Origin: Novosphingobium resinovorum
GTDB lineage: Bacteria > Pseudomonadota > Alphaproteobacteria > Sphingomonadales > Sphingomonadaceae
Direction of reading: 5' to 3'
Assembly: GCF_001742225.1 (NCBI RefSeq)
Contig: NZ_CP017075.1
Coordinates: forward strand, 2,604,001-2,668,000
DNA length: 64,000 nt
Both the position numbers and the translations under genes were made by a program. Below, piece by piece: positions 2,326-24,756 of the stretch (position 1 is its first letter; each line of letters begins with the position of its first letter). The notes under the pieces are model-generated. The model had not been told where the DNA came from and made no database searches. It saw only the letters and a program-made list of their open reading frames with translations.

Positions 2326-2384
2326 CCTTATAGGCAACTTTTTCCTAGTGTCGCACTACTCCTATAAACTTTTCCCCTATAAAG
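2326..2384. promoter_or_regulatory. Divergent promoter region with CCTATAA motifs (flgC / fliN)
   Basis: Between flgC and fliN the plus strand carries TCCTATAAA (2360-2368) and CCCTATAAA (2375-2383). The minus strand carries GCCTATAAGG (2326-2335). The motifs lie 24-40 nt before the GTG of fliN and about 27 nt before the preferred GTG of flgC. The same motif recurs ahead of most flagellar operons in the window. The promoter role is inferred. Confidence 0.55.
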
Positions 2385-2407
2385 CTGCCAGTGAAAGGAG
2401 ACGCGCG

Positions 2408-2641
2408 GTGTCCGTCCTCGAAGGCATTCCCATCGACCTGCAGATCGTGCTGGGCTCCACCAGCATCCCGGTCCGCCAGGTGCTCAAGATGAGCCGCGGC
2501 GCGATGATCCAGCTCGACTGCGGGCAGGACGATCCGACGCGCCTCTACGTCAACGACCGCCTCGTCGCCGAGGGCCGCATCCTCGTCAACGGCGAGGCCA
2601 TGTCGCTTGAAATCACCCGTGTGGTCCAGGCCGAGCGCTGA
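2408..2641 (+). CDS. fliN: FliN, flagellar motor switch protein (short form)
   Basis: FliN is a C-ring subunit working with FliM and FliG in rotor assembly and switching. The 77-residue product is essentially a single SpoA domain: GIPIDLQIVLGSTSIPVRQV then RLYVNDRLVAEGRILVNGEA, the FliN signature. Start is the GTG at 2408 with AAGGAG 7 nt upstream. It is at the short end for FliN (often 100-150 residues), lacking the acidic N-terminal extension. The fliO GTG follows after 3 nt, giving a fliN-fliO-fliP operon. Confidence 0.93.
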   Translation: MSVLEGIPIDLQIVLGSTSIPVRQVLKMSRGAMIQLDCGQDDPTRLYVNDRLVAEGRILVNGEAMSLEITRVVQAER

Positions 2642-2644
2642 AAG

Positions 2645-3067
2645 GTGGACCTGTTCTCGCTTGTGCGCATGCTGGGTGCCCTTATGGTCGTGTTGGGTGC
2701 CCTTGTCTGCGCTTTGTGGGCGGTCAAGCGCTACGACCTGACCATGCCGCGCAAGTGGCTGGAAAAGCTGGGTAATACTGGTTCTGACAAGCGTTTGCAG
2801 GTGGTCGAGCGGCTTGCCGTGGACCAGCGCCGCTCGCTGGTGCTGCTGCGCCGTGACGATACCGAATTCAGCGTCCTGATCGGCCCGGAAGGGGTGACGG
2901 TGCTGGACAGCGCGGTCGCTCCGAAGGTGGTCGAGATTGTCAAACAAAATGATGAAAATCAGATATTTGATAAGGAACCGGAAGCACAGAAAGCCTCCTT
3001 CGCGGCCCGCATTCCAGTGCTCCCGGACGTCTGGTTCACGCAGGACGTGAAGACGGAACTGCACTGA
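2645..3067 (+). CDS. fliO: FliO, flagellar export accessory membrane protein
   Basis: FliO is a single-pass inner membrane protein that helps assemble the FliP ring. The 140-residue product starts at a GTG with AAAGG adjacent and opens with one hydrophobic helix (LGALMVVLGALVCALWAVKRY). A basic region and KRLQVVERLAVDQRRSLVLL follow, matching FliO (LxVxExxxLxxxxxLxLV). Its TGA overlaps the ATG of fliP by 1 nt (TGATG), indicating translational coupling. Recognition rests on this pattern and on position between fliN and fliP. Confidence 0.88.
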   Translation: MDLFSLVRMLGALMVVLGALVCALWAVKRYDLTMPRKWLEKLGNTGSDKRLQVVERLAVDQRRSLVLLRRDDTEFSVLIGPEGVTVLDSAVAPKVVEIVKQNDENQIFDKEPEAQKASFAARIPVLPDVWFTQDVKTELH

Positions 3068-3852
3068 TGAGCGCCCCTGCCACCCCTGCCGGTTTCCCCG
3101 GGGAAACCGTGCTTCGGCGCATTCTGGCCGTTCTCGCGGTTCTGGTGGTGCTCGCCCTGCCCGTCGCGGCGATGGCCCAGAGTGCTGGCGCCGCAGGCGC
3201 AGCGAGCGCCCTGACCGGCGGCGGCACGATGTCGGGCCGGGTGCTGCAGCTGGTGATGGTGCTGACGGTGCTCAGCCTGGCGCCAGGCATCCTGATGACG
3301 ATTACCTCGTTCACCCGCATCGTCGTGGCGCTCTCGCTGCTGCGCTCGGGGATGGGCGTGCAGGGCGTGCCGCCCAATCCGATCGTCATTTCGCTGGCGC
3401 TGTTCCTTAGCTTCTTCGTCATGGCGCCGACGTTCGACGCAGCGTGGAAGCAGGGGATGGGGCCCTACAACGCCGGGCAGATCAACGAAACCGAGGCCCT
3501 GTCCCGCGCCAGCAAGCCGTTCCACACCTTCATGCTGAAGCAAGTGCGCGACGACGACGTGAAGCTGTTCGTCAGCCTCTCGGGCAAAGTCCCGAAGAGC
3601 CGCGCGGAACTGCCGATGACGACGCTGATGCCCGCCTTCATGATCTCCGAACTGCGCCGCGCCTTCGAGATCGGCTTCCTGCTGCTGCTGCCGTTCCTGG
3701 TGATCGATCTTGCGGTGGCGGCGGTGCTGATGGCCATGGGCATGATGATGCTGCCGCCCGCGACGGTCTCGCTGCCGATGAAGATCATCTTCTTCGTGCT
3801 GGTCGATGGCTGGGCGCTGGTCGCGGGGTCTCTGGTGAAGAGTTTCGGGTAG
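3067..3852 (+). CDS. fliP: FliP, flagellar export gate membrane protein
   Basis: FliP forms the pentameric core of the flagellar export channel. The 261-residue protein has a cleavable-type signal sequence (RRILAVLAVLVVLALPVAAM then AQ), then SFTRIVVALSLLRSGMGVQG, PPNPIVISLALFLSFFVMAP and a C-terminal MMMLPPATVSLPMKIIFFVL block. All are FliP family signatures. Last gene of the fliN-fliO-fliP operon; a family B palindrome follows immediately. Confidence 0.97.
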   Translation: MSAPATPAGFPGETVLRRILAVLAVLVVLALPVAAMAQSAGAAGAASALTGGGTMSGRVLQLVMVLTVLSLAPGILMTITSFTRIVVALSLLRSGMGVQGVPPNPIVISLALFLSFFVMAPTFDAAWKQGMGPYNAGQINETEALSRASKPFHTFMLKQVRDDDVKLFVSLSGKVPKSRAELPMTTLMPAFMISELRRAFEIGFLLLLPFLVIDLAVAAVLMAMGMMMLPPATVSLPMKIIFFVLVDGWALVAGSLVKSFG

Positions 3853-3866
3853 CGCCTTGCCGCAAG

Positions 3867-3959
3867 GGGCTTCGACAAGCTCAGCCTGAGCGGGTTGAGG
3901 GCGTTTGTCTCCCTGCGCGCGCCCCACACTCCGCTCATCCTGAGCTTGTCGAAGGATGG
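3867..3959. repeat. Intergenic inverted repeat, family B
   Basis: Arms at 3867-3895 (CTTCGACAAGCTCAGCCTGA) and 3930-3959 (TCATCCTGAGCTTGTCGAAG) are near-perfect reverse complements. They lie between the convergent ends of fliP and the fliL-like gene, where they could act as a bidirectional transcription stop. Same unit as at 1382-1500, 25803-25957 and 45384-45467. Confidence 0.85.
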
Positions 3960-3975
3960 GGTTCCAGCGCAGCCC

Positions 3976-4419
3976 CTACCCCGGCGACGCCTTCGTCACC
4001 GCCACGGAGCGTACCGCGTCCTTGCCGTAAACCTCCAGCGCGGCGTCCATCACCACCTTGCGGAAGGCATCGAGCCCCGGCAGCATCCCGTCCGGCCCGC
4101 TGGCCATCGGCGTGCGATAGGTCCGCAGGTTCACCGCGTTCATCAATAGCGGCAGCTTCGCGCCCACTTCCTCGGTCGTGCCCTGCGGCACCTCAAGCTG
4201 GATCTCGAAGGTTTCGTAGCCCGAAAGCCGCCCGTCGGCGAAGACCAGCGGCGCCAGCACTTCCACCGGCGGCACGAACTCGGTCGGGCCTTTGCCGGGC
4301 TTCTTCGCATGGCCCGTCACCAGTTGCGGCGCGAAGTGGAGCACGCCCCAGGCCCCCGCCCCGCCGACGCCGAGCCCCGCCACGGTGGCGAACAGGCCCA
4401 TCACGATGCGCTTGATCAT
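3976..4419 (-). CDS. FliL-like stator-associated membrane protein
   Basis: The 147-residue product has one N-terminal membrane helix (IVMGLFATVAGLGVGGAGAW) followed by a periplasmic domain. The domain has the FliL shape: a beta segment SGYETFEIQLEVPQG, then KLPLLMNAVNLRTYRTPMA and a helix FRKVVMDAALEVYG ending VRSVAVTKA. FliL surrounds the stator and stabilises it. The gene follows motB by 12 nt in a motA-motB-fliL-like operon. A second, more typical FliL is encoded at 20905-21492. Assignment is by pattern, so the exact family is moderately certain. Confidence 0.7.
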   Translation of the reverse strand: MIKRIVMGLFATVAGLGVGGAGAWGVLHFAPQLVTGHAKKPGKGPTEFVPPVEVLAPLVFADGRLSGYETFEIQLEVPQGTTEEVGAKLPLLMNAVNLRTYRTPMASGPDGMLPGLDAFRKVVMDAALEVYGKDAVRSVAVTKASPG

Positions 4420-4431
4420 GCCGCCCTCCGC

Positions 4432-5295
4432 TCAGAACTTGAAGCTGGCGTCATGCGGCAGCGCGCCCGCCTCGGCCATGACGACGATGGTGATGCGGCG
4501 GTTCTCGGGGCGATCGGGCTGGTCGGGATAGACCGGCTCGGTGCCCGCCTTGCCGACGACCTCCGCAAAGCGGTCAGCCGGCAGCCCCGCCGCCACCAGC
4601 GCCGCCCGCGCGGCAAGGGCGCGATCAGCCGAAAGCTGCCAGTTTGCGTCGCTGTTCCCGCCCGCGCCATCGGTATGGCCCTCGATGGCGATGCGCGCGT
4701 CGATCCCGGCAAGCTGCTTCGCCGCCCGCGTCAGCAGCGCCCGCGCGAATTCGTTGAGCTGCGCGGTGCTGCCCTTGAACATCGAACGCTGCGCATTGTC
4801 GACGAGGTGGATACGCATCCCCTCGCGGCTCGGCCGCACGTCGACATTGGCGCGGCCCTGGCTGTCCATCGGCGGCTGCAGCGCGACCTGCATCTCTTGC
4901 GCCATGACGCGCAGCGAAGCCGCGGGCACTTCGGCCGTGCCCCCGCGCGCGGTGCCCACGGTCCCGGCCTCCGATGCGGGCTGCCCTTCAGGCTCTTCCT
5001 TGTCGCCCTGATTGTTGCGCCCGTGGCCGCCCGATCCCGGCTGCATGCCGGGGTCCTTGGTCAGCGTGGTCGCGGGGTTGGCCTTCTCGGAATCGGCGGA
5101 GAAGTATTCGGCAAGGCCCTTGAGCTGCACTTCGTCCGGATTGGCGAGCAGCCACAGCAGCATGAAGAAGGCCATCATCGCGGTCACGAAGTCGGCATAG
5201 GCGACCTTCCATGCGCCGCCATGGTGGCCGCCGCCGACCACCTTCTTGACCTTGCGGATGACGATGGGGCGCTTGTCGTTGCCCTTGGTGGCCAT
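4432..5295 (-). CDS. motB: MotB, flagellar stator protein
   Basis: MotB anchors the stator to peptidoglycan and carries the proton-binding aspartate. The 287-residue protein has a basic cytoplasmic tail, one membrane helix VAYADFVTAMMAFFMLLWLL (residues 31-50, with Asp35 as the ion-binding residue), and a C-terminal OmpA-like domain. That domain includes IAIEGHTDGAG and a downstream ENRRITIVVM strand, the peptidoglycan-binding core. It follows motA by 13 nt. The aspartate and surrounding residues suggest a proton-driven rather than sodium-driven motor (inference). Confidence 0.96.
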   Translation of the reverse strand: MATKGNDKRPIVIRKVKKVVGGGHHGGAWKVAYADFVTAMMAFFMLLWLLANPDEVQLKGLAEYFSADSEKANPATTLTKDPGMQPGSGGHGRNNQGDKEEPEGQPASEAGTVGTARGGTAEVPAASLRVMAQEMQVALQPPMDSQGRANVDVRPSREGMRIHLVDNAQRSMFKGSTAQLNEFARALLTRAAKQLAGIDARIAIEGHTDGAGGNSDANWQLSADRALAARAALVAAGLPADRFAEVVGKAGTEPVYPDQPDRPENRRITIVVMAEAGALPHDASFKF

Positions 5296-5308
5296 GGGTC
5301 AGCGCGCC

Positions 5309-6193
5309 TTAGGCCGGAGCGGCATTGAGCTGTTCCTTCACCGCCTCCAGCGCCGTCTCCATCTCCTGGAAGCTGGGAGCGTAGTTCGACGGCGTCATGC
5401 GGCGGGCCAGTTCGATGGCGATCTCGGTGGGCTGCTCCTGCGCGTGGCCGACGATGGCGGTCTTGACCAGCGTGTAGGGCTTGAAATCAGCGTCGATGAT
5501 CTGCTGCAGCTTCTGCGCGATCGGGCCGACGAGGCAGTAGGCGAGCAGAACGCCGAGGAACGTGCCGACCAGCGCGCCGCCGATCATCGCGCCGAGGATC
5601 TCGGTGGGCTGGTCGATCGAGCTCATAGTCTTGATCACGCCCAGAACCGCCGCGACGATGCCGATCGCGGGCAGGCCGTCGGCCATCATCTGGATCGCGT
5701 GCTGGGGGCCGAGTTCCTCGTGGTGATGGCGCTCCATGTCGCCCTCCATCGCCTCGGCCAGCTGGTGCGGGTCCTCGAAGTTGACGGTCATCATGCGCAG
5801 GTAGTCGCAGATGAACTCGATCAGCTCGTGGTCCGCCAGCAGGCGCGGATAGCGGGAGAACAGCGCGCTTTCCTCCGGCCGGTCGAGATGCGGTTCGATG
5901 GCGTTGGCGCCGCCCTTGCGGAAAGTGGCGAGCAGCGCGAACAGCAGTGCGAGGAGGTCGCGGTAGTCCGCCTCCTTCCAGCGCTCGCCCTTGAACACGC
6001 GGGCGATGCCCTTGCCCGCCTTCTTCAGCGTGGTCATCGAATTGCCCAGCGCGAATGCGCCCAGCGCGGCTCCGCCGATCGCCATCATCTCATGCGGCAG
6101 GGCGTGGAAGATGACGCCCATGCTGCCGCCCGACATCAGGAAGCTGCCGAAGACGCACACCAGAATGACGACGAGGCCGACGATATTGAGCAT
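5309..6193 (-). CDS. motA: MotA, flagellar stator proton channel protein
   Basis: MotA forms the ion channel with MotB and applies torque to FliG. The 294-residue product starts MLNIVGLVVILVCVFGSFLM, with SGGSMGVIFHALPHEMMAIG, and contains the conserved MADGLPAIGIVAAVLGVIKT then GGALVGTFLGVLLAYCLVGP, which are MotA helices 3 and 4. I use the ATG at 6191-6193; the longer frame has no ribosome site. The promoter-like TCCTATAATT lies 48 nt upstream. Stator genes inside the structural cluster are a feature of many polar and lateral systems. Confidence 0.97.
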   Translation of the reverse strand: MLNIVGLVVILVCVFGSFLMSGGSMGVIFHALPHEMMAIGGAALGAFALGNSMTTLKKAGKGIARVFKGERWKEADYRDLLALLFALLATFRKGGANAIEPHLDRPEESALFSRYPRLLADHELIEFICDYLRMMTVNFEDPHQLAEAMEGDMERHHHEELGPQHAIQMMADGLPAIGIVAAVLGVIKTMSSIDQPTEILGAMIGGALVGTFLGVLLAYCLVGPIAQKLQQIIDADFKPYTLVKTAIVGHAQEQPTEIAIELARRMTPSNYAPSFQEMETALEAVKEQLNAAPA

Positions 6194-6240
6194 GGAAATT
6201 TCCGAGAAAGCTATGCCCGCGAGAGACGGGACCTTTGCTG

Positions 6241-6250
6241 AATTATAGGA
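6241..6250 (-). promoter_or_regulatory. TCCTATAAT motif before motA
   Basis: On the minus strand the sequence GCGTCCTATAATTC ends at 6241, 48 nt ahead of the motA ATG. It matches the motif before flbT (CATCCTATAATGG) and others in the cluster. I see no clear -35 element at the expected distance. The promoter role is inferred from position and recurrence. Confidence 0.55.
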
Positions 6251-6316
6251 CGCCGTGCTGCATCGCGGTGGTGGCTCGCGCATTTTTCGCAGGCGCGACC
6301 GGGCGACGGCCGGGCG

Positions 6317-6324
6317 TCCTATAT
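6317..6324 (+). promoter_or_regulatory. TCCTATAT motif before flaF
   Basis: GCGTCCTATATG lies 44 nt before the flaF ATG and shares its first ten bases with the motA-facing motif on the opposite strand 70 nt away. The intergenic region therefore carries one motif for each divergent gene. Confidence 0.5.
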
Positions 6325-6367
6325 GACTCGGGCGACGCTATTTGCCCCACCCCGCCCGGGAGCCCCG

Positions 6368-6736
6368 ATGTCCGTTAACGCCTACGTCCGCGCCCGCAAG
6401 GTCGCCGAGACGCCCCGCAGCACCGAATTCCGGCTGATGACCGAGATCACCGCGCAGATGATCGCCGCGCGCGATGCCGGGTTTTCGGGCGTGCAACTGG
6501 CTCCCGCGCTTCACCGCAACCGCGAGGTCTGGGGCGCCTTCCGCACGCTGTGCATCGATTCCGCCAACGCCCTGCCCGACGAATTGCGCGCCGGGATCAT
6601 CTCGCTGAGCCTGTGGGTGGACAAGTACACCTCGCAGGTCATCACCGGGCGCGAGAGCGTGGACGAACTGATCACCGTCAACCGCACCGTGATGGCCGGG
6701 CTGGCGAACGAGAACGGCGCGGTGCCGGTGGGGTGA
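6368..6736 (+). CDS. flaF: FlaF, flagellin synthesis regulator
   Basis: FlaF works with FlbT in alphaproteobacteria to couple flagellin translation and secretion to hook completion. The 122-residue product starts MSVNAYVRARKVAETPRSTE and contains a central FRTLCIDSANALPDELRAGI followed by ISLSLWVDKYT, the FlaF signature. The ATG at 6368-6370 is preferred over an upstream in-frame ATG, because conservation begins at MSVNAY. It stands alone on the plus strand, about 4.5 kb from its usual partner flbT at 10872-11276. Confidence 0.93.
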   Translation: MSVNAYVRARKVAETPRSTEFRLMTEITAQMIAARDAGFSGVQLAPALHRNREVWGAFRTLCIDSANALPDELRAGIISLSLWVDKYTSQVITGRESVDELITVNRTVMAGLANENGAVPVG

Positions 6737-6919: not shown

Positions 6920-7777
6920 TCAGTGCGCTGCGACCATCGCCTCGCGGTATTCGGCCATGAGCGCGAAGCGCGGGTCGGCGACGGCGAGGTCGCCCATCGT
7001 CTTGGCGGCGCGCTTGGCGATCTGGCGCATGCGTTCGCGGGCAGTCTCGTCCTCGCAACCATCGAGCGCCGAAGTCTCGAACAGGCGGCCCTCAACGACC
7101 TGGCGGTTGTGCTGGAGGCGCTGTTCCAGCTCTCCGACCTCTCCGGTATCGAGCACCGGACGGCGCTGCGCCACCGCCCCGGCGGCGCGCTCGGCGCGAG
7201 TCAGCTTGCGGGGCTGGGCGCGGCGGCGGATGCGGTCGAGCCCGGAATTGCGCATGTGCTCGACATAGCTGTCGGTCAGCGCGCTCATCGCCGAATGGGC
7301 GAGGTAGTCGCTGGCCCCGGCCTCGGTGCGGCCGAGCGCATCCTCGTCGGCGATAGCCGCCAGGATCGACAGCCCCTCCCCGTCCTCGCCCCCGGTGATG
7401 GCGTCGAGCGAGACGGTGGTGGCTTCCACCTTGCGCGCGGAGGGGCGCTGGTCGGTCATGACGCGGAAGCGCAGGCTCTGCAGTTCGCCGCGGATCTGCC
7501 AGTTCACGAACGTGGTGAACTGCGCCTTCTCCGGCTCGTAAGCCAGGATCGCGCGGTGGACGGCGATCGCGCAGCACTGCTCCGCATCGTCCCAGTGGCC
7601 GACGAGGCCATACTGGCGGATGAAATGGCGAATGCGCGGCGCGATCAGCTTGAGGATGCAGGCGAAAGCGCGGTCCACCTCGGCCCGCTGCCGCCGGGTC
7701 TGCTCGGTGCCTTCCGGCGGCGTATTGGCGCTGACCGCAGCAACCGCAGCCTCAAGCGCGACAGTGATCTTCGACAT
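6920..7777 (-). CDS. Atypical sigma-70 family factor in the flagellar cluster
   Basis: The 285-residue product has a recognisable sigma region 2: residues 36-110 include APRIRHFIRQYGLVGHWDDA and AIAVHRAILAYEPEKAQFTT then FVNWQIRGEL. These match core-binding helix 2.2 and the -10-recognition helix 2.3/2.4 (FDPEKGxFxTYAxWWIRxxI). Regions 3 and 4 are not evident, except RERMRQIAKRAAKTM (residues 247-261), which resembles the region 4.2 recognition helix (SRERVRQIExRAL). It sits alone among flagellar operons, so it may be the flagellar sigma factor or a specialised relative. It is much more diverged than ordinary FliA. Start ATG 7775-7777. Confidence 0.75.
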   Translation of the reverse strand: MSKITVALEAAVAAVSANTPPEGTEQTRRQRAEVDRAFACILKLIAPRIRHFIRQYGLVGHWDDAEQCCAIAVHRAILAYEPEKAQFTTFVNWQIRGELQSLRFRVMTDQRPSARKVEATTVSLDAITGGEDGEGLSILAAIADEDALGRTEAGASDYLAHSAMSALTDSYVEHMRNSGLDRIRRRAQPRKLTRAERAAGAVAQRRPVLDTGEVGELEQRLQHNRQVVEGRLFETSALDGCEDETARERMRQIAKRAAKTMGDLAVADPRFALMAEYREAMVAAH

Positions 7778-7835: not shown

Positions 7836-7866
7836 TCCTATAAATTGGGAACCAACAATCCTATAC
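7836..7866. promoter_or_regulatory. Paired TCCTATA motifs upstream of the sigma factor gene
   Basis: Two copies, TCCTATAAA (7836-7844) and TCCTATAC (7859-7866), lie 59-89 nt before the sigma factor ATG. They read in the plus direction, opposite to the gene, so on its strand they appear as TATAGGA. This orientation fits an operator or a palindromic element better than a simple -10. Confidence 0.4.
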
Positions 7867-7926
7867 GAGAGTTATCCACTGATGCGGCAAATTTTGCCGC
7901 GCAGATGGAGCGATTTTCCTAGTCGT

Positions 7927-8034
7927 CGTCCCGGACTTGATCCGGCACAGCTGGCCGAGAACGGCCTATCTTGCCGCGCGCGCAGCCCGGCCTCGCCTAA
8001 AGACAGCCACCGGTCCCGGATCAAGTCCGGGACG
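7927..8034. repeat. Inverted repeat, family D (CCCGGACTTGATCCGG)
   Basis: Perfect 19-nt arms CGTCCCGGACTTGATCCGG (7927-7945) and its reverse complement (8016-8034) are separated by a 70-nt loop. They lie between the transglycosylase gene and the sigma factor gene. Only one copy of this family is in the window. It may serve as a transcript 3' end or be a small dispersed element. Confidence 0.8.
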
Positions 8035-8051
8035 AAGCAATTGATATAGGA

Positions 8052-8996
8052 TCAGGCAAATCTTTCCGGCCGGACATGTTTGCCGACATAGTCCATCAGC
8101 CACGAACGGTGCGCCGCGACCGCACTTCCGGCCTGTGCGATCCGCCGTTCCGCCGCCGCCGAACCGACTTGCGCGCCCAGCAACTTGCGCGCGCGGTCGG
8201 GTGAGAGGCCGCCCGCAAGAAACCGCTTCGCATCGCCGACGCCGAGGTGATGGCCAAGGTACGCCGCCTGCGCGACCTCGGTGGTGCCCGCACCGATCGT
8301 CGCGCCCGAGCGGCGCAGCGCCGCGACATTGGCGCTGGCATAGTCGGCGACCGCCTCGATCGAGGCGCGCGGATCGTAGCGCAGCGCCAGCAGCGCGCCC
8401 CGGCTCTCGGCCTTGACCTGCCCGCGTGCGTCGAGCCAGCCGTTGGCCTCGGCCGTGCTGTTGAGCCAGGTGCCGGAGCGCTCCGCCTCGCCTTCCCACG
8501 TCCCGTTGAGGAACTGGCCGAGCCCCGCCGCGCTCGAACGCGGGTTACGCGAATAGGGCTGCCAAGTCCCGCCCGCGCCCTTGGCCGCCTCGGCATCGAC
8601 GATCGCCGCCAGCGCGGAGGCCGGAAGCCCGGTCCGCTCCGCCGCCGCATCGAGCATCCCGGCATAGCGCGCATTCGGGCCGCCGCCCATGGCGGACACC
8701 GCATCGCCGCTCGTCTCGGCCGGAGCCTCGGCCTGCGGCACAGCGGCCGTGTCCAGCGCCGCCTTCGAGTCCGGATCGAGGATCGCCAGCAACCGGTCGA
8801 GCCCGATCGGATCGCTCTGGCTGATGGCGGTAATGGAGGACTTGCCCTCGCCTTCCGTCTCTTCCGTCGAGCCCAGCGCCGCGCGCCACAGACGGCCGGA
8901 CATCTCCGAACGCGCCGTGTCATAGATCAACCGCGCCTTCTGCGACGCCGACAGATTCGCTGCCGTCAGGTTCGAAGAGGCGGTCTTGTCGATCAT
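8052..8996 (-). CDS. Flagellar lytic transglycosylase-like protein
   Basis: The 314-residue product has a lysozyme/SLT-like C-terminal half. ALAAIVDAEAAKG carries the likely catalytic glutamate, followed by NPRSSAAGLGQFLNGTWEGE, the usual SSAxGxxQFxxxTW motif of phage-type and soluble transglycosylases. The N-terminal 120 residues are low in conservation and rich in small residues. In an operon with fliI and fliJ (ATGA overlap with fliJ), it probably opens peptidoglycan for rod growth, the role of the FlgJ C-terminal domain elsewhere. No FlgJ rod-binding motif is recognisable, so I do not use that symbol. Confidence 0.72.
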   Translation of the reverse strand: MIDKTASSNLTAANLSASQKARLIYDTARSEMSGRLWRAALGSTEETEGEGKSSITAISQSDPIGLDRLLAILDPDSKAALDTAAVPQAEAPAETSGDAVSAMGGGPNARYAGMLDAAAERTGLPASALAAIVDAEAAKGAGGTWQPYSRNPRSSAAGLGQFLNGTWEGEAERSGTWLNSTAEANGWLDARGQVKAESRGALLALRYDPRASIEAVADYASANVAALRRSGATIGAGTTEVAQAAYLGHHLGVGDAKRFLAGGLSPDRARKLLGAQVGSAAAERRIAQAGSAVAAHRSWLMDYVGKHVRPERFA

Positions 8997-11303: not shown

Positions 11304-11312
11304 ATTATAGGA
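11304..11312 (-). promoter_or_regulatory. TCCTATAAT motif before flbT
   Basis: The minus strand reads CCCCCAAACCATCCTATAAT ending at 11304, 28 nt before the flbT ATG. The flgE region on the plus strand has the close relative CCCCAATTCATCCTACAATG, so similarity here extends about 8 nt upstream of the core motif. Confidence 0.55.
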
Positions 11313-11364
11313 TGGTTTGGGGGTGATCCGGTCATGGCAGGCAATTTTTGCCGGGGTCGCGCAT

Positions 11365-11563: not shown

Positions 11564-11572
11564 TCCTACAAT
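11564..11572 (+). promoter_or_regulatory. TCCTACAAT motif before flgE
   Basis: TTCATCCTACAATGCC lies 74 nt before the flgE ATG and is one mismatch from the flbT motif. It probably drives flgE-flgK-flgL. The role is inferred from recurrence across the cluster. Confidence 0.5.
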
Positions 11573-16266: not shown

Positions 16267-18030
16267 TCACTTCTTCCCCGCTTCCAGCAAATCCGCAAAA
16301 TCCCCTGCCGGACTGGCCGAGGGAATAGCCGCCATGGCCTGCGCCAGCTTCCCCGGATCGACCGCCCCGGCAGTCCCGGTCAGCATCTCGAACACCGGCG
16401 CCGACGACAGCCCCTTGAACGCCCCCGCATAGCGCGCGTGGAGTCCGGAAAGCGCGTCCTCCCGCCCCAGCATCGCCTGCGAGATCGCATGGCGCAGCAC
16501 TTGCGCCTGCGCCACCGGATCGAGAACACGCCCCTTCGGTAGAGCGCCCGCCGAGAACGCCGCATAGCGTGCCCAGTCGCGCCGCTGCCAAAGGATTTCC
16601 GCCTGCAGCGCCGAGGTTCCGGGCAAGTCCTGCAGCACTGCCAGAGCCTCGTCGGCACGGCCGACTTGCGTGAGGGCAGCCGCCTCGACGCGCTTGCGTT
16701 CGGCGATCATCGCGTCGGGCAGGCCGGGATCGTCGGTTTCGCGCAAGGTGCGCAAAGCCCGCCCGGGCCTGCCGGCAAGGATGTAGAGCCCCGCCACCCG
16801 CGCCGAAAGCGGCCCGCGGGCAAGGTCTCCGGCACGCTGCGTCAGCTGGTAGGAAAGGAGGTCCGCCGCACGCTCGTAGAGGCCCGCCTGCTGCAGCCGC
16901 GCGGCAAGCTGGCTCGCCATGAGGTCGCCCTCGGCGCCGTTCGGGGCGAGGTCGCGATAATCCCAGTAGAGCCCGGCCGCCTTATCCAGCGGCAGCTTGC
17001 GGGCGGGGTCAAGCGCGGCCGTCAGCTTCGCGCGCAGGCCGGGCAGGAACTCCGGCCCGAGGTCGGCGACATCGTGGAAGCGCACCAGCGCCGCTCCGGC
17101 GGACAGCGTCCCGGACAAGTCGCCGCGCGCGTCGGCAAGGCGGTAGGACAGGCGCAGCGCGCGTTCCTCGATACCGTCGCCGCGCCAGGAATAACGGATG
17201 GCGTCGACTTCCTTCAGCGCCGCCCCGGGGCGGATCGCGCCCCGGGCAACGTCGCCCTCCAGCTTGCTGAGGCGGGCGTCCATGCGCTCGACCGGGTCGC
17301 CGGACTGCACGACGCGGGCGAAGCGCAGGCGGGCTTCGTCGGCGTGGCCCAGCGCCTGCTGCGCACGGGCGCGCAGCAGGTTGGCGGCGGGTTCGCGGTC
17401 GGGGAGCCAGGAAAGCCAGTGCAGCGCCTTGTCCGGCGCACCGCCCTCCACACCCGCGCGCGCGGCGGCGAGGACGAACGGCGCGCCGCGTGGGCTGGCG
17501 AGTGCGGGTCCGGCGCAGTCCAGCTGCGCCAGCGCCTGCTCGGCAAGGCCCTCCTGCGCCAGCGCGCGCAGGCGCCACAGGCATGCCTCGGGATTGGCGC
17601 GAAGGCCCGGCATGTCGAGTTCGGCCATCGCATCCTCGGAGCGGCCGAGCTGCGTCAACGCCGCGCCGTGGGCCAGCCTCCACGCATCGACCATGCCGAG
17701 GTCGGGGTCGTCCTGCCGCATGACTTCCAGTACGCCCAGCGCTTCCGGCCCGCGCTCGGCGGCGATCAGGCTTCGAGCATAGTCCCAGCGCACCGCCTGC
17801 CGCTGCGGGTTCGGCGCGGTGGAGAGGCGGCGCCATGCCTCGGCCTCGGCCAGCGGGGTCCAGGCACCGACACCGGTAAGCGGCGGGCGCTGCGCCAGTT
17901 CGGCCGCGAAGCCCGGCAGCCGCGCACCCACGCCGGGGTCGAGCGTACCGTAGGGCAGCGGCGGCGCGCCGGTCGTACCGCACAACAGCGAGGCGCCCAG
18001 CACCAGCGCCGCGCCCGGCAGCAGCCGCAT
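16267..18030 (-). CDS. Large repeat-rich exported protein of unknown function (flagellar cluster)
   Basis: The 587-residue product begins MRLLPGAALVLGASLLCGTT, a signal sequence with a poor lipobox (SLLC). The body is helical, with many degenerate 34-residue-like units (LxxLGRSEDAMAEL, AQQALGHADEARLRFARVV, AALTQVGRADEALAVLQDL), so it probably folds as TPR/Sel1-type solenoid repeats in the periplasm. It lies between flgL and a small membrane protein, on the strand opposite flgL. It may be a scaffold for the motor or secretion apparatus, but I do not recognise a named family. Start ATG 18028-18030. Confidence 0.7.
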   Translation of the reverse strand: MRLLPGAALVLGASLLCGTTGAPPLPYGTLDPGVGARLPGFAAELAQRPPLTGVGAWTPLAEAEAWRRLSTAPNPQRQAVRWDYARSLIAAERGPEALGVLEVMRQDDPDLGMVDAWRLAHGAALTQLGRSEDAMAELDMPGLRANPEACLWRLRALAQEGLAEQALAQLDCAGPALASPRGAPFVLAAARAGVEGGAPDKALHWLSWLPDREPAANLLRARAQQALGHADEARLRFARVVQSGDPVERMDARLSKLEGDVARGAIRPGAALKEVDAIRYSWRGDGIEERALRLSYRLADARGDLSGTLSAGAALVRFHDVADLGPEFLPGLRAKLTAALDPARKLPLDKAAGLYWDYRDLAPNGAEGDLMASQLAARLQQAGLYERAADLLSYQLTQRAGDLARGPLSARVAGLYILAGRPGRALRTLRETDDPGLPDAMIAERKRVEAAALTQVGRADEALAVLQDLPGTSALQAEILWQRRDWARYAAFSAGALPKGRVLDPVAQAQVLRHAISQAMLGREDALSGLHARYAGAFKGLSSAPVFEMLTGTAGAVDPGKLAQAMAAIPSASPAGDFADLLEAGKK

Positions 18031-18035
18031 GCGCC

Positions 18036-18317
18036 TCACAGCGATTCCGCCGATGCAATGCCCGAGATCACCAGCAAGGCCCCGCCGATCGCACAGCCGA
18101 CGAGGAACAGCACCAGCGCGCCGAACACCCACAAGAGGCTCCCGCCCTGCCGGGTCGGAGCCGCGAGCACAGCGGCAGCCACCGCCTCGGCGTCCTCATC
18201 CGGCCGATCGCCGCGACGGCGCCCCGGATTAACGCCGGGATTTTCCTGTGCGGACGCACCCTCGCCCTGGTTCGCGGATACCACGCGGACCTTGGCTGGA
18301 CGCCGATCGCTGCTCAT
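18036..18317 (-). CDS. Small single-pass membrane protein (flagellar cluster)
   Basis: The 93-residue product has a charged, low-complexity N-terminal half and one C-terminal helix LLWVFGALVLFLVGCAIGGA followed by LLVISGIASA. It ends 5 nt before the ATG of the repeat-rich protein, so the two are probably co-transcribed and may interact. No family is recognised. A GAGTCC-type weak ribosome site precedes the ATG at 18315-18317. Confidence 0.6.
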   Translation of the reverse strand: MSSDRRPAKVRVVSANQGEGASAQENPGVNPGRRRGDRPDEDAEAVAAAVLAAPTRQGGSLLWVFGALVLFLVGCAIGGALLVISGIASAESL

Positions 18318-18341: not shown

Positions 18342-18352
18342 TCCTATTATAG
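18342..18352 (+). promoter_or_regulatory. TCCTATTATAG motif between divergent genes
   Basis: TTTCATCCTATTATAG lies 28 nt before the ATG of the plus-strand exported protein and 25-35 nt before the minus-strand small membrane protein (read there as TATAATAGGA). It fits the cluster-wide motif with one extra base. Confidence 0.45.
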
Positions 18353-18379: not shown

Positions 18380-18793
18380 ATGCCCCGCTTCCGTTTCTTT
18401 GTTCCGGCCCTGCTGCTCTGCGCGGCACCGGCGTTCGCCGCGAACACCGATCCGCGCAAGGCGGTGGAACTGCCGCCGCCCGATCCCACGTTCCTGGCGA
18501 TGGAGCAGATCGACGCGCCGATCGTCGATGGCGGCCGGGTGGACGGGGTGCTCCACGTCTCGATCACGCTGCAGGCGAAGACCGCCGACGATGCCGCCGC
18601 GCTCGGCAAGCGGATGCCGGAACTGCGTGCCGCAGCGCTCCCCGCCGCGATCGAGTTCGCCCGCCTGCGCGCCTCGCGCTTCGCGCCGGTGGATGTGGAA
18701 CGTCTGGCGGGGATGATCGCGCCGTCAGTGAAGCAGGTGGACCCGGCCATCGACAAGGTCCTGATCGTGAAGGTTTCCGCGACGGAGCGGTGA
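18380..18793 (+). CDS. Small exported protein, possibly FliL-related (flagellar cluster)
   Basis: The 137-residue product has a clear signal peptide (FRFFVPALLLCAAPAFAAN) and a compact domain with DGVLHVSITLQAKTADDAAA, LGKRMPELRAAALPAAIEFA and a final KVLIVKVSATER. The arrangement (strand, helix with RxPxLR, terminal strand) is like the FliL periplasmic domain without the membrane anchor. It is monocistronic, divergent from the small membrane protein. A third FliL-like protein would be unusual, so I give this only as a possibility. Confidence 0.6.
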   Translation: MPRFRFFVPALLLCAAPAFAANTDPRKAVELPPPDPTFLAMEQIDAPIVDGGRVDGVLHVSITLQAKTADDAAALGKRMPELRAAALPAAIEFARLRASRFAPVDVERLAGMIAPSVKQVDPAIDKVLIVKVSATER

Positions 18794-19459: not shown

Positions 19460-19472
19460 GCCACGCGCCCAG

Positions 19473-21492: not shown

Positions 21493-21516
21493 GTGCGTCC
21501 GCGCGCGCGGTTTCAA

Positions 21517-21530
21517 TCCTATATAGGGGA
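21517..21530. promoter_or_regulatory. Palindromic CCTATATAGG between fliL and flgF
   Basis: The region holds TTTCAATCCTATATAGGGGA, with the perfect 10-nt palindrome CCTATATAGG at 21518-21527. It is 25 nt from the fliL ATG (minus) and 53 nt from the flgF ATG (plus). A symmetric copy of the cluster motif between two divergent operons could serve both. Confidence 0.55.
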
Positions 21531-21580
21531 TTAAGAGCCCTTTCCGGGTTCGCCCAAGATTTTTGCGAAAAGGTCCGCCG

Positions 21581-22324
21581 ATGGACGTTTCTTCCTTCGT
21601 CCTCCTCAGCCACGAGCAGGCCCTGCGCCGCCAGCTGGACGTGGCCGCGAACAACATGGCGAACGTTTCGACCGCGGGATACAAGCGCGAGCAGGCGGTG
21701 TTCCACGAATATGTCGAGAACGCGCAGGAAGCCCCGGTGCAGGACGCGCGGAAAACCTCCTACGTGCTCGATTACGGGCAGGTCCACGACATCGCCCAGG
21801 GCGCGTTCCAGTCCACCGGCAACCCGCTCGACGTGATGATCGAGGGGCGGGGCTATCTCAACGTCGAGATGCCCGACGGCTCCACCGGCTACACCCGCGC
21901 GGGCTTCGTGAAAGTGCTGGAAAGCGGCGAGCTGGCGACCTCCGGCGGCCAGCGCCTGCTCGACGAGAACGGCCGCCCGATCGCCATTCCCGCCGACCAG
22001 CTGGCGCAAGTCTCAATCACCGCCGACGGCACCGTCATGGCGGGCCAGGACCCGGTCGGCCGCCTCGCGGTGACGGGCTTCGCCGACGAGAACATGCTCG
22101 AGGCGCGCGGCGACGGCGTCCTCACCGGCAGCGGCGGCACCGTGATGACCGCCGCCCAGACCCGCTTGCGCAGCGGCGGCGTCGAGGCCTCCAACGTCGA
22201 GCCGATTTCCGAGACCACCCGCATGGTCGAGGTGCTGCGCTCCTATCAGGTCAGCCAGCGCCTTTCGGCCGACCTTTCCGACATGCGCCGCAAGGCCATC
22301 GACCGCCTCAGCAGGATCGGCTGA
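21581..22324 (+). CDS. flgF: FlgF, proximal rod protein
   Basis: FlgF is a rod subunit of the basal body. The 247-residue product begins MDVSSFVLLSHEQALRRQLD, then VAANNMANVSTAGYKREQAV, and contains GNPLDVMIEGRGYLNVEMPD and a C terminus VEPISETTRMVEVLRSYQVS. All belong to the FlgF/FlgG family; the shorter length and MxxSxxVLLS start favour FlgF. I chose the ATG at 21581 over an upstream in-frame ATG at 21563, because the conserved start is there and AAGG lies 8-11 nt upstream. First gene of flgF-flgG-flgA-flgH. Confidence 0.94.
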   Translation: MDVSSFVLLSHEQALRRQLDVAANNMANVSTAGYKREQAVFHEYVENAQEAPVQDARKTSYVLDYGQVHDIAQGAFQSTGNPLDVMIEGRGYLNVEMPDGSTGYTRAGFVKVLESGELATSGGQRLLDENGRPIAIPADQLAQVSITADGTVMAGQDPVGRLAVTGFADENMLEARGDGVLTGSGGTVMTAAQTRLRSGGVEASNVEPISETTRMVEVLRSYQVSQRLSADLSDMRRKAIDRLSRIG

Positions 22325-22402
22325 TCGATGCCACTGCCCGCGCAAAACCCTGTCCGTCATTCCAGCCCGACCGCGCCGCTCTAAGTCCGAAGGAAACCGC
22401 CC

Positions 22403-23188
22403 ATGCGTTCGCTCTCCATCGCCTCGACCGGCATGCTGGCCCAGCAAACCAACGTCGACGTCATCTCGAACAACATCGCCAACATGAACACCACCGGCTT
22501 CAAGCGGCAGCGGGCGGAATTCCAGGATCTGCTCTACCAGCAGGAAACCCGCCCCGGCGCCTCGACCAGCTCGGACGGGACCAAGGTGCCTACCGGCATC
22601 CAGATCGGCGCGGGCGTGAAGACCGGCGGCGTCTATCGCATCACCGAGCAGGGCGCACTGACCAGCACCGGCAACCAGTACGACATGGCCATCGACGGCG
22701 AGGGCTATTTCCAGGTCATGCTGCCTTCGGGCGACCTCGCCTATACCCGCGCGGGCTCGTTCCAGCTGTCCGATCAGGGCGAGCTGGTGACCACCGACGG
22801 CTACCGCGTGCAGCCCGACATCACCATCCCGCAGGGCGCGGTGGCGGTCTCGGTCTCCAAGACCGGCGAGGTGCAGGTGAAGCTCGACGGGCAGGCGCAG
22901 ATGCAGACCGTGGGCCAGCTCGAACTGGCCACCTTCATCAATCAGGCGGGCCTCGAAGCCATCGGCGACAGCCTGTTCCAGGAAACCGGCGCATCGGGCC
23001 AGCCCATCGTCTCGACCCCCGGCCAGCCCGGCTACGGCACGCTGAGCCAGGGCTTCATCGAAGCCTCGAACGTCAACCCGGTCTCGGAAATCACCGCGCT
23101 GATCACCGCCCAGCGCGCCTACGAGATGAACAGCCGCGTGCTCAAGACCGCCGACGAGATGCTCCAGACCTCGACGCAGACCGTCTGA
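22403..23188 (+). CDS. flgG: FlgG, distal rod protein
   Basis: FlgG builds the distal rod. The 261-residue protein starts MRSLSIASTGMLAQQTNVDV then ISNNIANMNTTGFKRQRAEF, with QDLLYQQETRPGASTSSDGT (the FlgG-specific loop) and a C terminus GFIEASNVNPVSEITALITA then QRAYEMNSRVLKTADEML. AAGGAAA precedes the ATG by 7 nt. The stop overlaps the start of flgA (TGATG). Length is the usual 260-262 residues. Confidence 0.97.
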   Translation: MRSLSIASTGMLAQQTNVDVISNNIANMNTTGFKRQRAEFQDLLYQQETRPGASTSSDGTKVPTGIQIGAGVKTGGVYRITEQGALTSTGNQYDMAIDGEGYFQVMLPSGDLAYTRAGSFQLSDQGELVTTDGYRVQPDITIPQGAVAVSVSKTGEVQVKLDGQAQMQTVGQLELATFINQAGLEAIGDSLFQETGASGQPIVSTPGQPGYGTLSQGFIEASNVNPVSEITALITAQRAYEMNSRVLKTADEMLQTSTQTV

Positions 23189-23613
23189 TGCTGTCGGCGT
23201 TGCTCGTCCTCGCCGTCGCCGCCGCGCCCGCGGGGGAACCCACGCCGGTGCTCGCCCGCACGGTGGAGCGCGGGGAGGTGCTGGCGCGCGCCGATTTCGA
23301 GACGCAGCGCGTCCCCGCCGCCGTCGCGCGCGGCGCCCTCTCCCCGGCCGACGCCGCCGGGCAGGAAGCGACCCGCCGCATCATGGCGGGCTCCGCCGTC
23401 CGCGCTGCCGACGTCGCCGCGCCGCGCCTCGTGCGGCGGGGGGAAAACGTGACGATCGCGCTCGTTTCCGGAGCCTTGCGCATCACCTCGCCCGGCCGCG
23501 CGCTTGCCGATGCCGGGCGCGGCGAGCCGGTGCGCGTCCTCAATCTCGCCACCAACCGCACGCTCGAAGGCACCGCCGCCGCGACGGGCGAAGTGCGCAT
23601 CGCGCTTCCGTAG
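23188..23613 (+). CDS. flgA: FlgA, P-ring assembly chaperone
   Basis: FlgA is a periplasmic chaperone for FlgI polymerisation into the P ring. The 141-residue product has a signal peptide (MLSALLVLAVAAAPAGEPTP) and an SAF-type domain with VERGEVLARADFETQRVPAA and AVRAADVAAPRLVRRGENVT, then ITSPGRALADAGRGEPVRVL. This matches the C-terminal domain of FlgA; the N-terminal domain of longer FlgA proteins is absent. Overlaps flgG by 1 nt. flgI, its client, is not in the window. Confidence 0.92.
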   Translation: MLSALLVLAVAAAPAGEPTPVLARTVERGEVLARADFETQRVPAAVARGALSPADAAGQEATRRIMAGSAVRAADVAAPRLVRRGENVTIALVSGALRITSPGRALADAGRGEPVRVLNLATNRTLEGTAAATGEVRIALP

Positions 23614-23621
23614 GAACCCTC

Positions 23622-24398
23622 ATGAACAAGCGTCTCGCCGCCCTCACCTGCGCCCTTCTCTCGGCCAGCCTGCTGGCGGGCTGCGGCTCGGTCGGCCGCC
23701 TCAAGAACGTCGGAAAAGCGCCGAAAATGAGCGATCCCGGCGCCCCCGTGGCCCCGCGCATCGAACCCTCTCTGGGCAACCACGCGAGCGGCGATCGCGC
23801 GCCCGACGGCAGCGATCCCAAGGTCGCCGAGGCCGATCGCGGCGCCTCCCTCTTCCGCACCGGCGGCGGCGCGTTCTTCCGCGACCAGCGCGCCTCGCGC
23901 GTCGGCGACATCGTCACGATCCGCATCAACATCGCCGACAACGCCCAGGTCGCCAACAGCACCACGCGCACCCGCAACGGCAGCGAAGGCGGCGGAATTG
24001 CGGCACTTCTGGGCCTCGAGAGCCAGATCGGCAAAGTCCTTCCCGGCAACCCGGACCCGGGCAACCTCGTCAGCACCAATTCGAAGTCGAGCGCGGTCGG
24101 CGTCGGCAACACCACCCGGTCCGAGCAGATCAACATGACCGTGGCCGCCACCGTGATCGGCGTCCTGCCCAACGGCAACCTCGCCATTCGCGGCAAGCAG
24201 GAAGTGCGCGTCAACTTCGAACTGCGCGAACTGGTGGTTTCCGGCGTGATCCGGCCCGAAGACATCGCCCGCGACAACTCGATCCGCCACAGCCAGATCG
24301 CCGAGGCGCGCATCAGCTACGGCGGCCGCGGCCAGCTGACCGACGCGCAGCAGGCCCGCTGGGGCCAGCAGATCTACGACGCGCTGTTCCCGTTCTGA
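23622..24398 (+). CDS. flgH: FlgH, flagellar L-ring lipoprotein
   Basis: FlgH forms the outer-membrane L ring. The 258-residue protein has a lipoprotein signal (ALLSASLLAGCGSVGRL, Cys21 lipobox LAGC). Its FlgH signatures include ASLFRTGGGAFFRDQRASRV then GDIVTIRINIADNAQVAN, and a C terminus ISYGGRGQLTDAQQARWGQQ. Start ATG 23622 after AGGAA. Last gene of flgF-flgG-flgA-flgH; flgI, usually next, is missing here. Confidence 0.96.
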   Translation: MNKRLAALTCALLSASLLAGCGSVGRLKNVGKAPKMSDPGAPVAPRIEPSLGNHASGDRAPDGSDPKVAEADRGASLFRTGGGAFFRDQRASRVGDIVTIRINIADNAQVANSTTRTRNGSEGGGIAALLGLESQIGKVLPGNPDPGNLVSTNSKSSAVGVGNTTRSEQINMTVAATVIGVLPNGNLAIRGKQEVRVNFELRELVVSGVIRPEDIARDNSIRHSQIAEARISYGGRGQLTDAQQARWGQQIYDALFPF

Positions 24399-24756
24399 GG
24401 GGTACCTAACGGCACCCAACGGGGGTTTAAGGAGGGGCTAACCGGTACACAAGGGGTGCCGGAGCGGCGTCGAAGCACAGCACCCGTCATCCCAGCGAAG
24501 GCTGGGACCGCTGGCCGTGTACAGCCCCCTCGCGCTGAAGGGCTCCTCGGCAAGCTCGCGTCTAAAGACCGATAGCGGTCCCAGCCTTCGCTGGGATGAC
24601 GGGCTTTTGTCGGAGAGCCCGGGAAAGCATTCCTATAGTTTTTCCACAGGCCGCAACCATCCTTTAACGACTCCTCCTAGAATAAAGTCGCACCCGTATC
24701 TTTCGGGATTGCGAGAGGCCGCAGAATCGGCCGGTAACCTAGAAGGGAAAATTGAA
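24399..24756. repeat. flgH-flagellin intergenic region with family A palindrome and flagellin leader
   Basis: The 358-nt gap contains perfect 30-nt inverted arms CCGTCATCCCAGCGAAGGCT-type (24483-24512 and 24573-24602), a diverged family A unit with a 60-nt loop. After that comes the flagellin promoter region with TCCTATAGT at 24631 and a leader of about 115 nt to the flagellin ATG. No gene is evident in the gap. Confidence 0.85.
24631..24638 (+). promoter_or_regulatory. TCCTATAG motif and long leader before flagellin
   Basis: GCATTCCTATAGTTTTTCC lies 119 nt before the flagellin ATG. If it marks the promoter, the mRNA has a leader of about 110 nt. That is long enough for a FlbT-binding structure, and it is the longest leader behind any copy of the motif here. 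The ribosome site AGAAGGGA is 8 nt before the ATG. Confidence 0.5.

What the first reader, a model, noticed from the sequence alone, without database searches (positions are those of the whole stretch)
2326..24638. A shared TCCTATA-type motif precedes nearly every flagellar operon
Near-identical sites occur before fliN (2360), motA (6241, minus), flaF (6317), the sigma factor (7836 and 7859, reversed), flbT (11304, minus), flgE (11564, one mismatch), the exported protein (18342), fliL/flgF (21517, palindromic) and flagellin (24631). Most lie 25-75 nt from a start codon. Two (flbT, flgE) share additional upstream bases (CCCCAA...CATCCTAnAATG). I see no consistent -35 partner, no sigma54 GG-N10-GC and no enteric FliA TAAA-N15-GCCGATAA. 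Outside this cluster I noticed only one full copy, inside kpsM coding DNA. It may be the -10 for a dedicated sigma factor or an activator site.
Basis: partly seen in the sequence, partly recalled or inferred. Interest (0 to 1): 0.75.

Follow-up and report, generated by a model that had tools for sequence, protein, structure and literature searches.

The report
Promoter code of a dedicated flagellar sigma
A short DNA word repeated in front of the flagellum genes of this bacterium looks like the switch sequence read by a little-studied sigma factor encoded in the same gene cluster, which would give this group of bacteria its own way of turning on motility genes.

Summary
The motif is real: 10 exact TCCTATA in the window against 0.53 expected; 12 of the genome's 79 copies lie in the flagellar cluster. 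In 80 loci of relatives encoding the cluster's sigma-like protein, TCCTATAA is the most over-represented 8-mer (183 seen, 2.3 expected). It lies 17-38 nt before flbT in 50 of the 51 loci that have it, of 68. The flgE variant TCCTACAAT is conserved (39 of 68). So it is most likely a promoter -10. TCCTATAATG is in excess in 16 sigma-positive genomes (60 against 22 for the reversed word), not in 15 sigma-negative relatives (4 against 20). Best reading: a flagellum-dedicated sigma-70-family factor of sphingomonads, neither FliA nor sigma-54, reads it, helped at flbT by a FlbD-type protein. Recognition by this sigma is inferred, not shown. Two reversed sites at the sigma gene lack promoter features.

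The parts
2360..2368 (+). TCCTATAAA, proposed -10 of the fliN promoter; GTG about 41 nt downstream
   Evidence: reverse-strand copy upstream of flgC, i.e. facing fliN, in 7 of 7 relatives that reach it; no CC at -18 in this class
6242..6250 (-). TCCTATAAT, -10 of motAB; ATG at 6193, about 50 nt downstream
   Evidence: exact word upstream of motA in 23 of 27 relatives
6266..6269 (-). ACCG, -35 of motAB
   Evidence: own alignment; pattern match G000:C1:2610244-2610269
6317..6323 (+). TCCTATA, -10 of flaF; ATG about 44 nt downstream
   Evidence: 14 of 27 relatives
6298..6301 (+). ACCG, -35 of flaF
6920..7777 (-). Sigma-70-family factor (P0001; start at M14 of the longest ORF by alignment), proposed reader of the motif
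   Evidence: the window's copy itself has no Pfam hit
7836..7842 (+). TCCTATA reversed relative to the sigma gene; role unknown (autoregulation proposed)
   Evidence: reverse copies in 46 of 68 relatives
7859..7865 (+). second reversed TCCTATA, 23 nt from the first
7886..7898 (.). palindrome GGCAAATTTTGCC upstream of the sigma gene
   Evidence: G000:C1:2611886-2611898; GGCAA-N3-TTGCC upstream of sig in only 5 of 68 relatives
8045..8051 (-). TCCTATA reading toward the sigma gene, about 267 nt before its ATG
   Evidence: forward copy upstream of sig in 27 of 68 relatives at 173-235 nt
11304..11312 (-). TCCTATAAT, -10 of the flbT operon; ATG about 29 nt downstream
   Evidence: exact word in 51 of 68 relatives
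11329..11332 (-). ACCG, -35 of flbT (spacer one base longer than at motA)
11340..11352 (.). palindrome GGCAAAAATTGCC, proposed activator site centred about 34 nt before TCC
   Evidence: G000:C1:2615340-2615352; palindrome-like at the same place in 35 of 51 relatives' flbT sites
11564..11572 (+). TCCTACAAT, variant -10 of flgE (with flgK and flgL behind it); ATG about 75 nt downstream
   Evidence: TCCTACAAT in 39 of 68 relatives
18342..18350 (+). TCCTATTAT, weaker match before the exported protein at 18380
   Evidence: not tested in relatives
21517..21525 (+). TCCTATATA (near-palindromic) between the fliL-fliM and flgF operons; could serve either side
   Evidence: not tested in relatives
24631..24637 (+). 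TCCTATA about 119 nt before fliC
   Evidence: not tested in relatives
24675..24683 (+). TCCTAGAAT, one-mismatch copy about 75 nt before fliC
   Evidence: sequence printed; not tested in relatives

Best explanation
TCCTATAAT is the -10 element (TATAAT preceded by a strongly preferred TCC) of a flagellar promoter class of sphingomonads. Most members also have a weak -35 (ACCG, 17-bp spacer) and an A/T tract about 50 bp before the expected start. It is most likely read by the divergent sigma-70-family factor encoded in the cluster (window 6920-7777, minus). Region 2.4 of this factor is nearly invariant, while its region 4 is variable and shortened in the window's clade, which fits a promoter dominated by its -10. 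At flbT a FlbD-type Fis-HTH protein encoded beside fliN and flhA probably binds the GGCAA-N3-TTGCC palindrome as activator. Shown by computation: the motif, its positions, the co-occurring elements, and the co-occurrence with the sigma gene. Inferred: that it is a -10, that this sigma reads it, and that FlbD activates.
For: Top 8-mer in 80 relatives' loci. Exact word within 250 nt upstream: flbT 51/68, motA 23/27, flgI 6/6, flaF 14/27, against 0 for the reversed word ATATCCT in the same stretches (0-1); flgE TCCTANAA in 51/68 where about 1 is expected. flbT site to ATG 17-38 nt in 50 of 51. Class-balanced ACCG at -19..-16; CC at -18 in flbT 45%, motA 74%, flgI 67%, flaF 100%, post-sigma 61%, against class means of 11-20% at other positions. 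Purine as commonest base at +15 in flbT (A84), motA (A73), flaF (G92), flgI (G83), flgE (G90), sigF (A55) and post-sigma (A50). A weight matrix trained on relatives separates 12 cluster sites from 66 others with AUC 0.94, top five all cluster. TCCTATAATG genome-wide: 60 against 22 for the reversed word in 16 sigma-positive genomes, 4 against 20 in 15 sigma-negative ones. Sigma identity: Sigma70_r2 or r4 Pfam domains on many of the 120 listed homologs; family profile hits RpoS region 4 at E 7e-5 for the whole chain.
Against: No expression or start-site data. 67 of 79 own-genome copies lie outside the cluster. 17 of 68 relatives lack the exact word at flbT (14 keep CTATAA 21-33 nt before ATG, 3 do not) and 10 of 68 lack it in the whole locus, though 8 of those 10 have the commonest region 2.4. 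CC at -18 is absent in the fliN class and only 22% in sigF and in flgE (flgE 14% elsewhere); single other positions reach 41% (flbT), 46% (post-sigma) and 67% (flgI). The +15 signal is modest (class-balanced 0.22 bit; +11 and +16 are as strong) and fliN has mostly C. In the own genome the A/T tract is in only 4 of 10 forward cluster sites (others 10 of 66). Non-cluster sites rank 6th and 7th in the matrix test, and its upstream part alone gives AUC 0.73. Reverse sites at sig do not look like promoters. Foldseek finds no significant global match (best E 0.066). 12 of 80 sigma loci lack flbT plus flgE in view (at least 3 because the contig ends), and sigma homologs exist in genomes without a flagellin hit, so the sigma may have other jobs.
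Confidence: 0.7

Rival explanations
1. The motif is a -10 element, but it is read by the housekeeping or another sigma factor (TATAAT is close to the general -10), with flagellar specificity given by an activator such as the FlbD-type protein at the A-tract or palindrome.
For: The core TATAAT is the general sigma-70 -10 (recalled). Own genome has 30 Sigma70_r2 matches, none of them P0001. Activator-like palindrome and A tract lie upstream. In relatives that lost the exact word, 8 of 10 have an unchanged region 2.4.
Against: The TCC part is kept at flbT in 51 of 68 loci, and TCCTATAATG is in excess only in the tested genomes that have this sigma. The palindrome is largely confined to flbT (35/51; motA 0/23), so it cannot give specificity to all sites.
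Confidence: 0.22
2. TCCTATA is the binding site of a transcription factor that works in both orientations, not a promoter element.
For: Conserved reverse copies upstream of the sigma gene in 46 of 68 relatives, two or three copies in 20 of those 46. As a class they lack the -35 (CC at -18 in 3%) and mostly the A tract (15 of 70).
Against: Elsewhere orientation is fixed: flbT 51 forward against 3 reverse. Distance to ATG is tight, there is a 17-bp-spaced weak -35, and a modest purine preference at +15.
Confidence: 0.06
3. Chance or compositional artefact.
For: 67 copies lie outside the cluster, and the reversed word is commoner genome-wide (410 against 79).
Against: Shuffle controls, reversed-word controls at the same places and conservation across genera.
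Confidence: 0.02

Closest known systems
FliA (sigma-28)/FlgM flagellar regulon
   Same: A sigma-70-family factor dedicated to flagellar promoters and encoded with flagellar genes.
   Different: Different sequence family and different code (recalled FliA consensus TAAA-N15-GCCGATAA absent from the cluster). The genome also holds a frame that I take by eye for FliA, beside an orphan flagellin. S. wittichii has FliA and FlgM genes (PMC3238334, passages).
Caulobacter sigma-54/FlbD/FliX class III flagellar promoters
   Same: FlbD-type HTH, ftr-like palindrome GGCAA-N3-TTGCC (consensus recalled), FlbT and FlaF.
   Different: No -24/-12 elements with at most 1 mismatch at the five genes scanned. FlbD match lies in a short frame without room for AAA+ in 10 of 16 sigma-positive genomes tested, in a long frame in 6. 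No AAA+ activator in the own cluster.
ECF sigma RpoE6 of Azospirillum brasilense (minor flagellin fliC2 operon)
   Same: Alternative sigma factor encoded in an alphaproteobacterial flagellar cluster (PMC12826043, abstract and passages).
   Different: In the passages seen RpoE6 serves the fliC2-fliD-fliS-rpoE6-asf6 operon and rpoE8. Here the code precedes hook, basal-body, motor and switch genes. I did not compare the two sigma sequences.
RpoH (sigma-32)
   Same: Some sources name homologs 'RNA polymerase sigma-32 factor'; alphaproteobacterial RpoH -10 (CCTATAT, recalled) resembles TCCTATA.
   Different: No CTTG-type -35 in the class-balanced profile; no RpoH family hit (NCBIfam at E 0.001; Pfam at E 10).
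CtrA-controlled fla2 promoters of Rhodobacter sphaeroides
   Same: Alphaproteobacterial flagellar promoters with an activator site near -35 (PMC6180460, passages).
   Different: The CtrA-like word TTAACC (recalled) occurs upstream of the sigma gene (37/68) but not of flbT, flgE, fliI or flgK (0/68 each).

Membership tests
sigma-70-family factor | region 2 (-10 recognition) | tested here: met
   PF04542 on several of the 120 listed homologs; model residues 16-121 resemble SigC region 2 (TMt 0.68-0.76, prob 0.96, but E above 1); the window's own copy has no Pfam hit
sigma-70-family factor | region 4 helix-turn-helix | tested here: met
   PF04545 on many ~350-aa homologs, RpoS region 4 with the family profile, E 7e-5 for the whole chain; shortened in the window's clade, 2-residue deletion
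FliA (sigma-28) | FliA promoter consensus at flagellar genes | tested here: not met
   TAAA-N15-GCCGATAA 0 in 47 kb; relaxed form 0
FliA (sigma-28) | sequence family FliA | tested here: not met
   NCBIfam gives only PRK06759 (19.6 bits, cut-off 133)
sigma-54/FlbD system | -24/-12 element upstream of hook and other operons | tested here: not met
   relatives, at most 1 mismatch: flgE, flbT, sig and fliI 0 of 68 each, motA 0 of 27; at most 2: 2, 2, 1, 0, 0; own cluster strict pattern 0 in 47 kb
sigma-54/FlbD system | FlbD with AAA+ domain | tested here: not met
   own FlbD-like protein 160 aa with HTH_8 only; no PF00158 in the cluster; but 6 of 16 sigma-positive genomes have a long FlbD frame with about 1 kb between its two matched ends (AAA+ there not scanned)
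promoter -10/-35 of a sigma-70-type holoenzyme | two elements spaced about 17 bp and a purine start 6-8 nt after the -10 | tested here: inconclusive
   spacing and weak -35 met in most classes, not in fliN; +15 purine modest; no experimental start sites
dedicated flagellar sigma regulon | transcription depends on the sigma factor | not testable with these tools
   co-occurrence only
ECF sigma (RpoE6 type) | ECF family membership and cognate anti-sigma | not tested
   no Pfam hit for the window's copy; anti-sigma not searched

The most novel reading that the evidence does not exclude
Part of the sphingomonads has rewired the Caulobacter-type flagellar hierarchy: sigma-54 control of hook and basal-body operons was replaced by a flagellum-dedicated, -10-dominated sigma-70-family factor with the code ACCG-N15-TCCTAYAAT. 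FlbD, freed from sigma-54, lost its AAA+ domain in some lineages and became a Fis-like activator at about -50. Genomes that keep a long FlbD beside the new code would be intermediates.
Probability: 0.35. Interest if true: 0.75.

Novelty: new variant of a known kind. Interest (0 to 1): 0.6.

Why it matters
Dedicated flagellar sigma factors are known as FliA. A 2025 paper states that none is known in Alphaproteobacteria (abstract of PMC12826043), although S. wittichii has a FliA annotation (passages of PMC3238334). A second flagellar sigma of another family, with a readable promoter code, would let flagellar regulons be predicted from sequence across sphingomonads. It would question the view that FlbD there works as a sigma-54 activator (passages of PMC8921679), and it offers a natural series for how one regulatory circuit replaces another.

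Tried and rejected
Rejected: 'the sigma lost region 4 in Novosphingobium' (first idea from protein lengths). The alignment shows region 4 present but shortened in the window's clade, and the extra length of Sphingomonas forms is a C-terminal tail. 'Sphingomonads lost rpoN': PF00309 is in 144 of 147 genomes of the order, own included. 'A second flagellar cluster at 2250 kb serves as control': only one FlhA is in the genome, and tblastn of the own cluster proteins on 2225-2285 kb found only a distant flagellin, so it is no control. 'AAA+-less FlbD always goes with the new code': 6 of 16 genomes have a long FlbD frame. 'The palindrome is the general activator site': it is nearly confined to flbT. 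'Promoter drift follows region 2.4 changes': 8 of the 10 loci without the exact word share the commonest region 2.4. Global Foldseek matches were uninformative.

Limits of the counts. One search kept the best 80 of 101 confirmed stretches. One search merged near-identical sites (218 kept). One search trained without own, L079 and L080, and searches examined 78 of the 79 own sites (two overlapping ones at C3:729358 and 729361 were counted once); its 12 positives include the two reversed sites. Searches use the 68 of 80 loci with flbT and flgE; of the 12 dropped, L111, L140 and L152 are cut by contig ends near the sigma gene, so the orphan control (1 of 12 with the forward word, 1 of 12 with the reverse) includes them. 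I chose by hand 15 of the 80 sigma loci's genomes plus own, and 15 flagellin-positive, sigma-negative genomes of the own family. on the same 31 genomes (ACCS-N15-17-TCCTATA): 61 in 16 sigma-positive, 14 in 15 sigma-negative, but the reversed pattern is commoner than the pattern in all 31, so that test alone is weak. One search also counted 30 flbT loci of other families (TCCTATA 8 in 99.6 kb, reversed word 23); their GC is 51%, so they are no clean control. only admits proteins of 0.55-1.75 times the query length, so absence of AAA+ there proves nothing; searches are the test. Orthologous sites within a class are not independent, which is why class-wise results are given. Distances in the own cluster were counted by hand on printed sequence.


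Full report
What is there. The window is G000:C1:2604001-2668000 of a 6.92-Mb genome. Its sigma-like protein is 98% identical to one in Novosphingobium resinovorum, so I take the genome to be a close relative. The flagellar cluster runs from about 21 kb left of the window (flgD, flhA, FlbD-like, fliN, fliF, fliG, flgI, flhB) to fliC at about 25.6 kb. TCCTATA occurs 10 times in the window where 0.53 is expected and 79 times in the genome, 12 of them in a 47-kb stretch covering the cluster. The reversed word is commoner in the genome (410).

Comparison. A search with the cluster's sigma-like protein kept the best 80 of 101 confirmed loci; 79 titles name sphingomonads and one an uncultured bacterium. 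An 8-mer count on all 80 ranked TCCTATAA first (183 against 2.3, in 58 of 80 loci). By gene, within 250 nt upstream, forward: flbT 51/68, motA 23/27, flaF 14/27, flgI 6/6, sig 27/68; fliI, flgK and flgL 0/68, gene 8052 0/67, motB 0/9, fliP 0/7. The reversed word ATATCCT gives 0 in the classes. flgE uses TCCTACAAT: TCCTANAA in 51 of 68 loci (39 TCCTACAAT) where about 1 is expected, 44-75 nt before ATG. At flbT the site lies 17-38 nt before ATG in 50 of 51 loci (the other at 144). Of the 17 loci without the exact word there, 14 keep CTATAA 21-33 nt before ATG; in L104, L138 and L151 the best variant lies elsewhere.

Promoter anatomy. With T of TCC as 0: an A/T tract at -40..-29 in flbT 49/51, motA 23/23, flgE 49/51, flgI 5/6, flaF 8/14, post-sigma 10/28, sigF 5/27; ACCG at -19..-16, 17 bp from TATAAT, with CC at -18 in flbT 45%, motA 74%, flgI 67%, flaF 100%, post-sigma 61%, but sigF 22%, flgE 22%, fliN 0%, where class means at other positions are 7-20% and single other positions reach 41% (flbT), 46% (post-sigma) and 67% (flgI). 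A purine is the commonest base at +15 in seven of eight forward classes (fliN is the exception), but the class-balanced signal is modest (0.22 bit; +11 and +16 are as strong). Among own-genome sites [ACG]CC[GC] at -20..-18 occurs in 6 of 10 forward cluster sites, 0 of 2 reverse ones and 8 of 66 others; the A/T tract in 4 of 10 forward cluster sites and 10 of 66 others. flgI sites lie 9-21 nt from ATG, so transcripts would be nearly leaderless.

Upstream palindrome. GGCAAAANTTGCC with up to 3 mismatches precedes 63 of 218 non-redundant sites, start peaked at -41, against 38 of 2000 random 70-mers. It is mainly an flbT feature (35 of 51 at -44..-38; sigF 7 of 27; motA 0 of 23). Own genome: 10 GGCAA-N3-TTGCC sites (7 for the reversed pattern), three in the cluster (fliF, sig, flbT). 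The cluster's FlbD-like protein (P0122, 160 aa) has a Fis-type HTH and no AAA+.

The sigma factor. P0001 has no Pfam hit itself, but many of the 120 listed relatives carry Sigma70_r2 or Sigma70_r4 and the family profile hits RpoS region 4. Region 2.4 is nearly invariant in the variants listed; region 4 varies and is shortened in the window's clade. The predicted structure is confident over region 2 (whole-model pLDDT 77, pTM 0.42), but no PDB match is significant.

Link between motif and sigma. TCCTATAATG occurs 60 times in 16 sigma-positive genomes (reversed word 22) and 4 times in 15 sigma-negative genomes of the family that have flagellin (reversed word 20). A matrix trained on relatives separates cluster from other own-genome sites (AUC 0.94; near part 0.90, upstream part 0.73; the two best non-cluster sites rank 6th and 7th). 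Where sigma homologs stand without flagellar genes the word is rare: 1 of 12 forward and 1 of 12 reverse, and one copy in the six such loci fetched. This is correlation: the sigma-negative genomes may also differ in their flagellar gene sets, which I did not compare.

Unsettled. Reverse copies upstream of the sigma gene are conserved in 46 of 68 loci, 61-129 nt before ATG, in two or three copies in 20 of the 46, without -35 (CC at -18 in 3%) and mostly without A tract (15 of 70). I propose autoregulation or a polymerase trap but have no evidence for either. TTAACC, a CtrA-like half-site (recalled), occurs upstream of sig in 37 of 68 loci and upstream of flbT, flgE, fliI and flgK in none, so CtrA may sit above the sigma gene.

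Literature. In the listings (20 of 54 papers listed; 20 of 40; 10 of 47; PMC open-licence papers only) I saw no paper on this motif or this sigma. PMC8921679 (passages) likens the Sphingomonas WG hierarchy to Caulobacter with FlbD as sigma-54 activator. PMC12826043 (abstract, passages) says no flagellum-specific sigma is known in Alphaproteobacteria. PMC3238334 (passages) lists FliA and FlgM in S. wittichii.

Verdict. A real, conserved promoter class; very probably a -10; probably read by the cluster's own sigma factor. A new variant of a known kind.

Noticed in passing
window 7836-7865 and L079-L158 upstream of sig: One to three reversed TCCTATA copies are conserved before the sigma gene in 46 of 68 loci but as a class lack promoter features.
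   Followed up: partly
L190:4094-7567 and L192:7223-8035 (own genome C1 about 2249-2253 kb and 405-406 kb): A sigma-70-like frame that I take by eye for FliA next to an orphan flagellin, and another orphan flagellin, with no second FlhA in the genome: perhaps remnants or extra filament genes of a FliA-type system.
   Followed up: partly
L114, L119, L120, L126, L129, L131, L148, L150, L153; L224, L226-L229: Paralogs or homologs of the sigma with no other own-type flagellar gene found nearby by tblastn; around L120 there are FUSC, GNAT, M14 peptidase and HAD genes.
   Followed up: partly
L225 (G138): A genome with no flagellin hit keeps the sigma gene beside a homolog of the window's gene 8052-8996, and no other own-type flagellar gene in the 19 kb seen.
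   Followed up: no
L079-L158: Second over-represented word family CTCTATTT/AAATAGAG (67 against 2.8, 57 of 80 loci); its location and meaning were not examined.
   Followed up: no
window 7920-8045: Inverted repeat-like copies of CCCGGACTTGATCCGGG in the long leader of the sigma gene; similar sequences lie upstream of the orphan flagellin in L190.
   Followed up: no
own genome C3:513565, C4:108103 and G151:C5:45817: A sequence ACCGATGTTCATGAG...TCCTATA outside the flagellar cluster is repeated on different contigs and in another genome.
   Followed up: no
window 16267-18132 minus: A 621-aa reading frame with weak TPR similarity inside the flagellar cluster.
   Followed up: no
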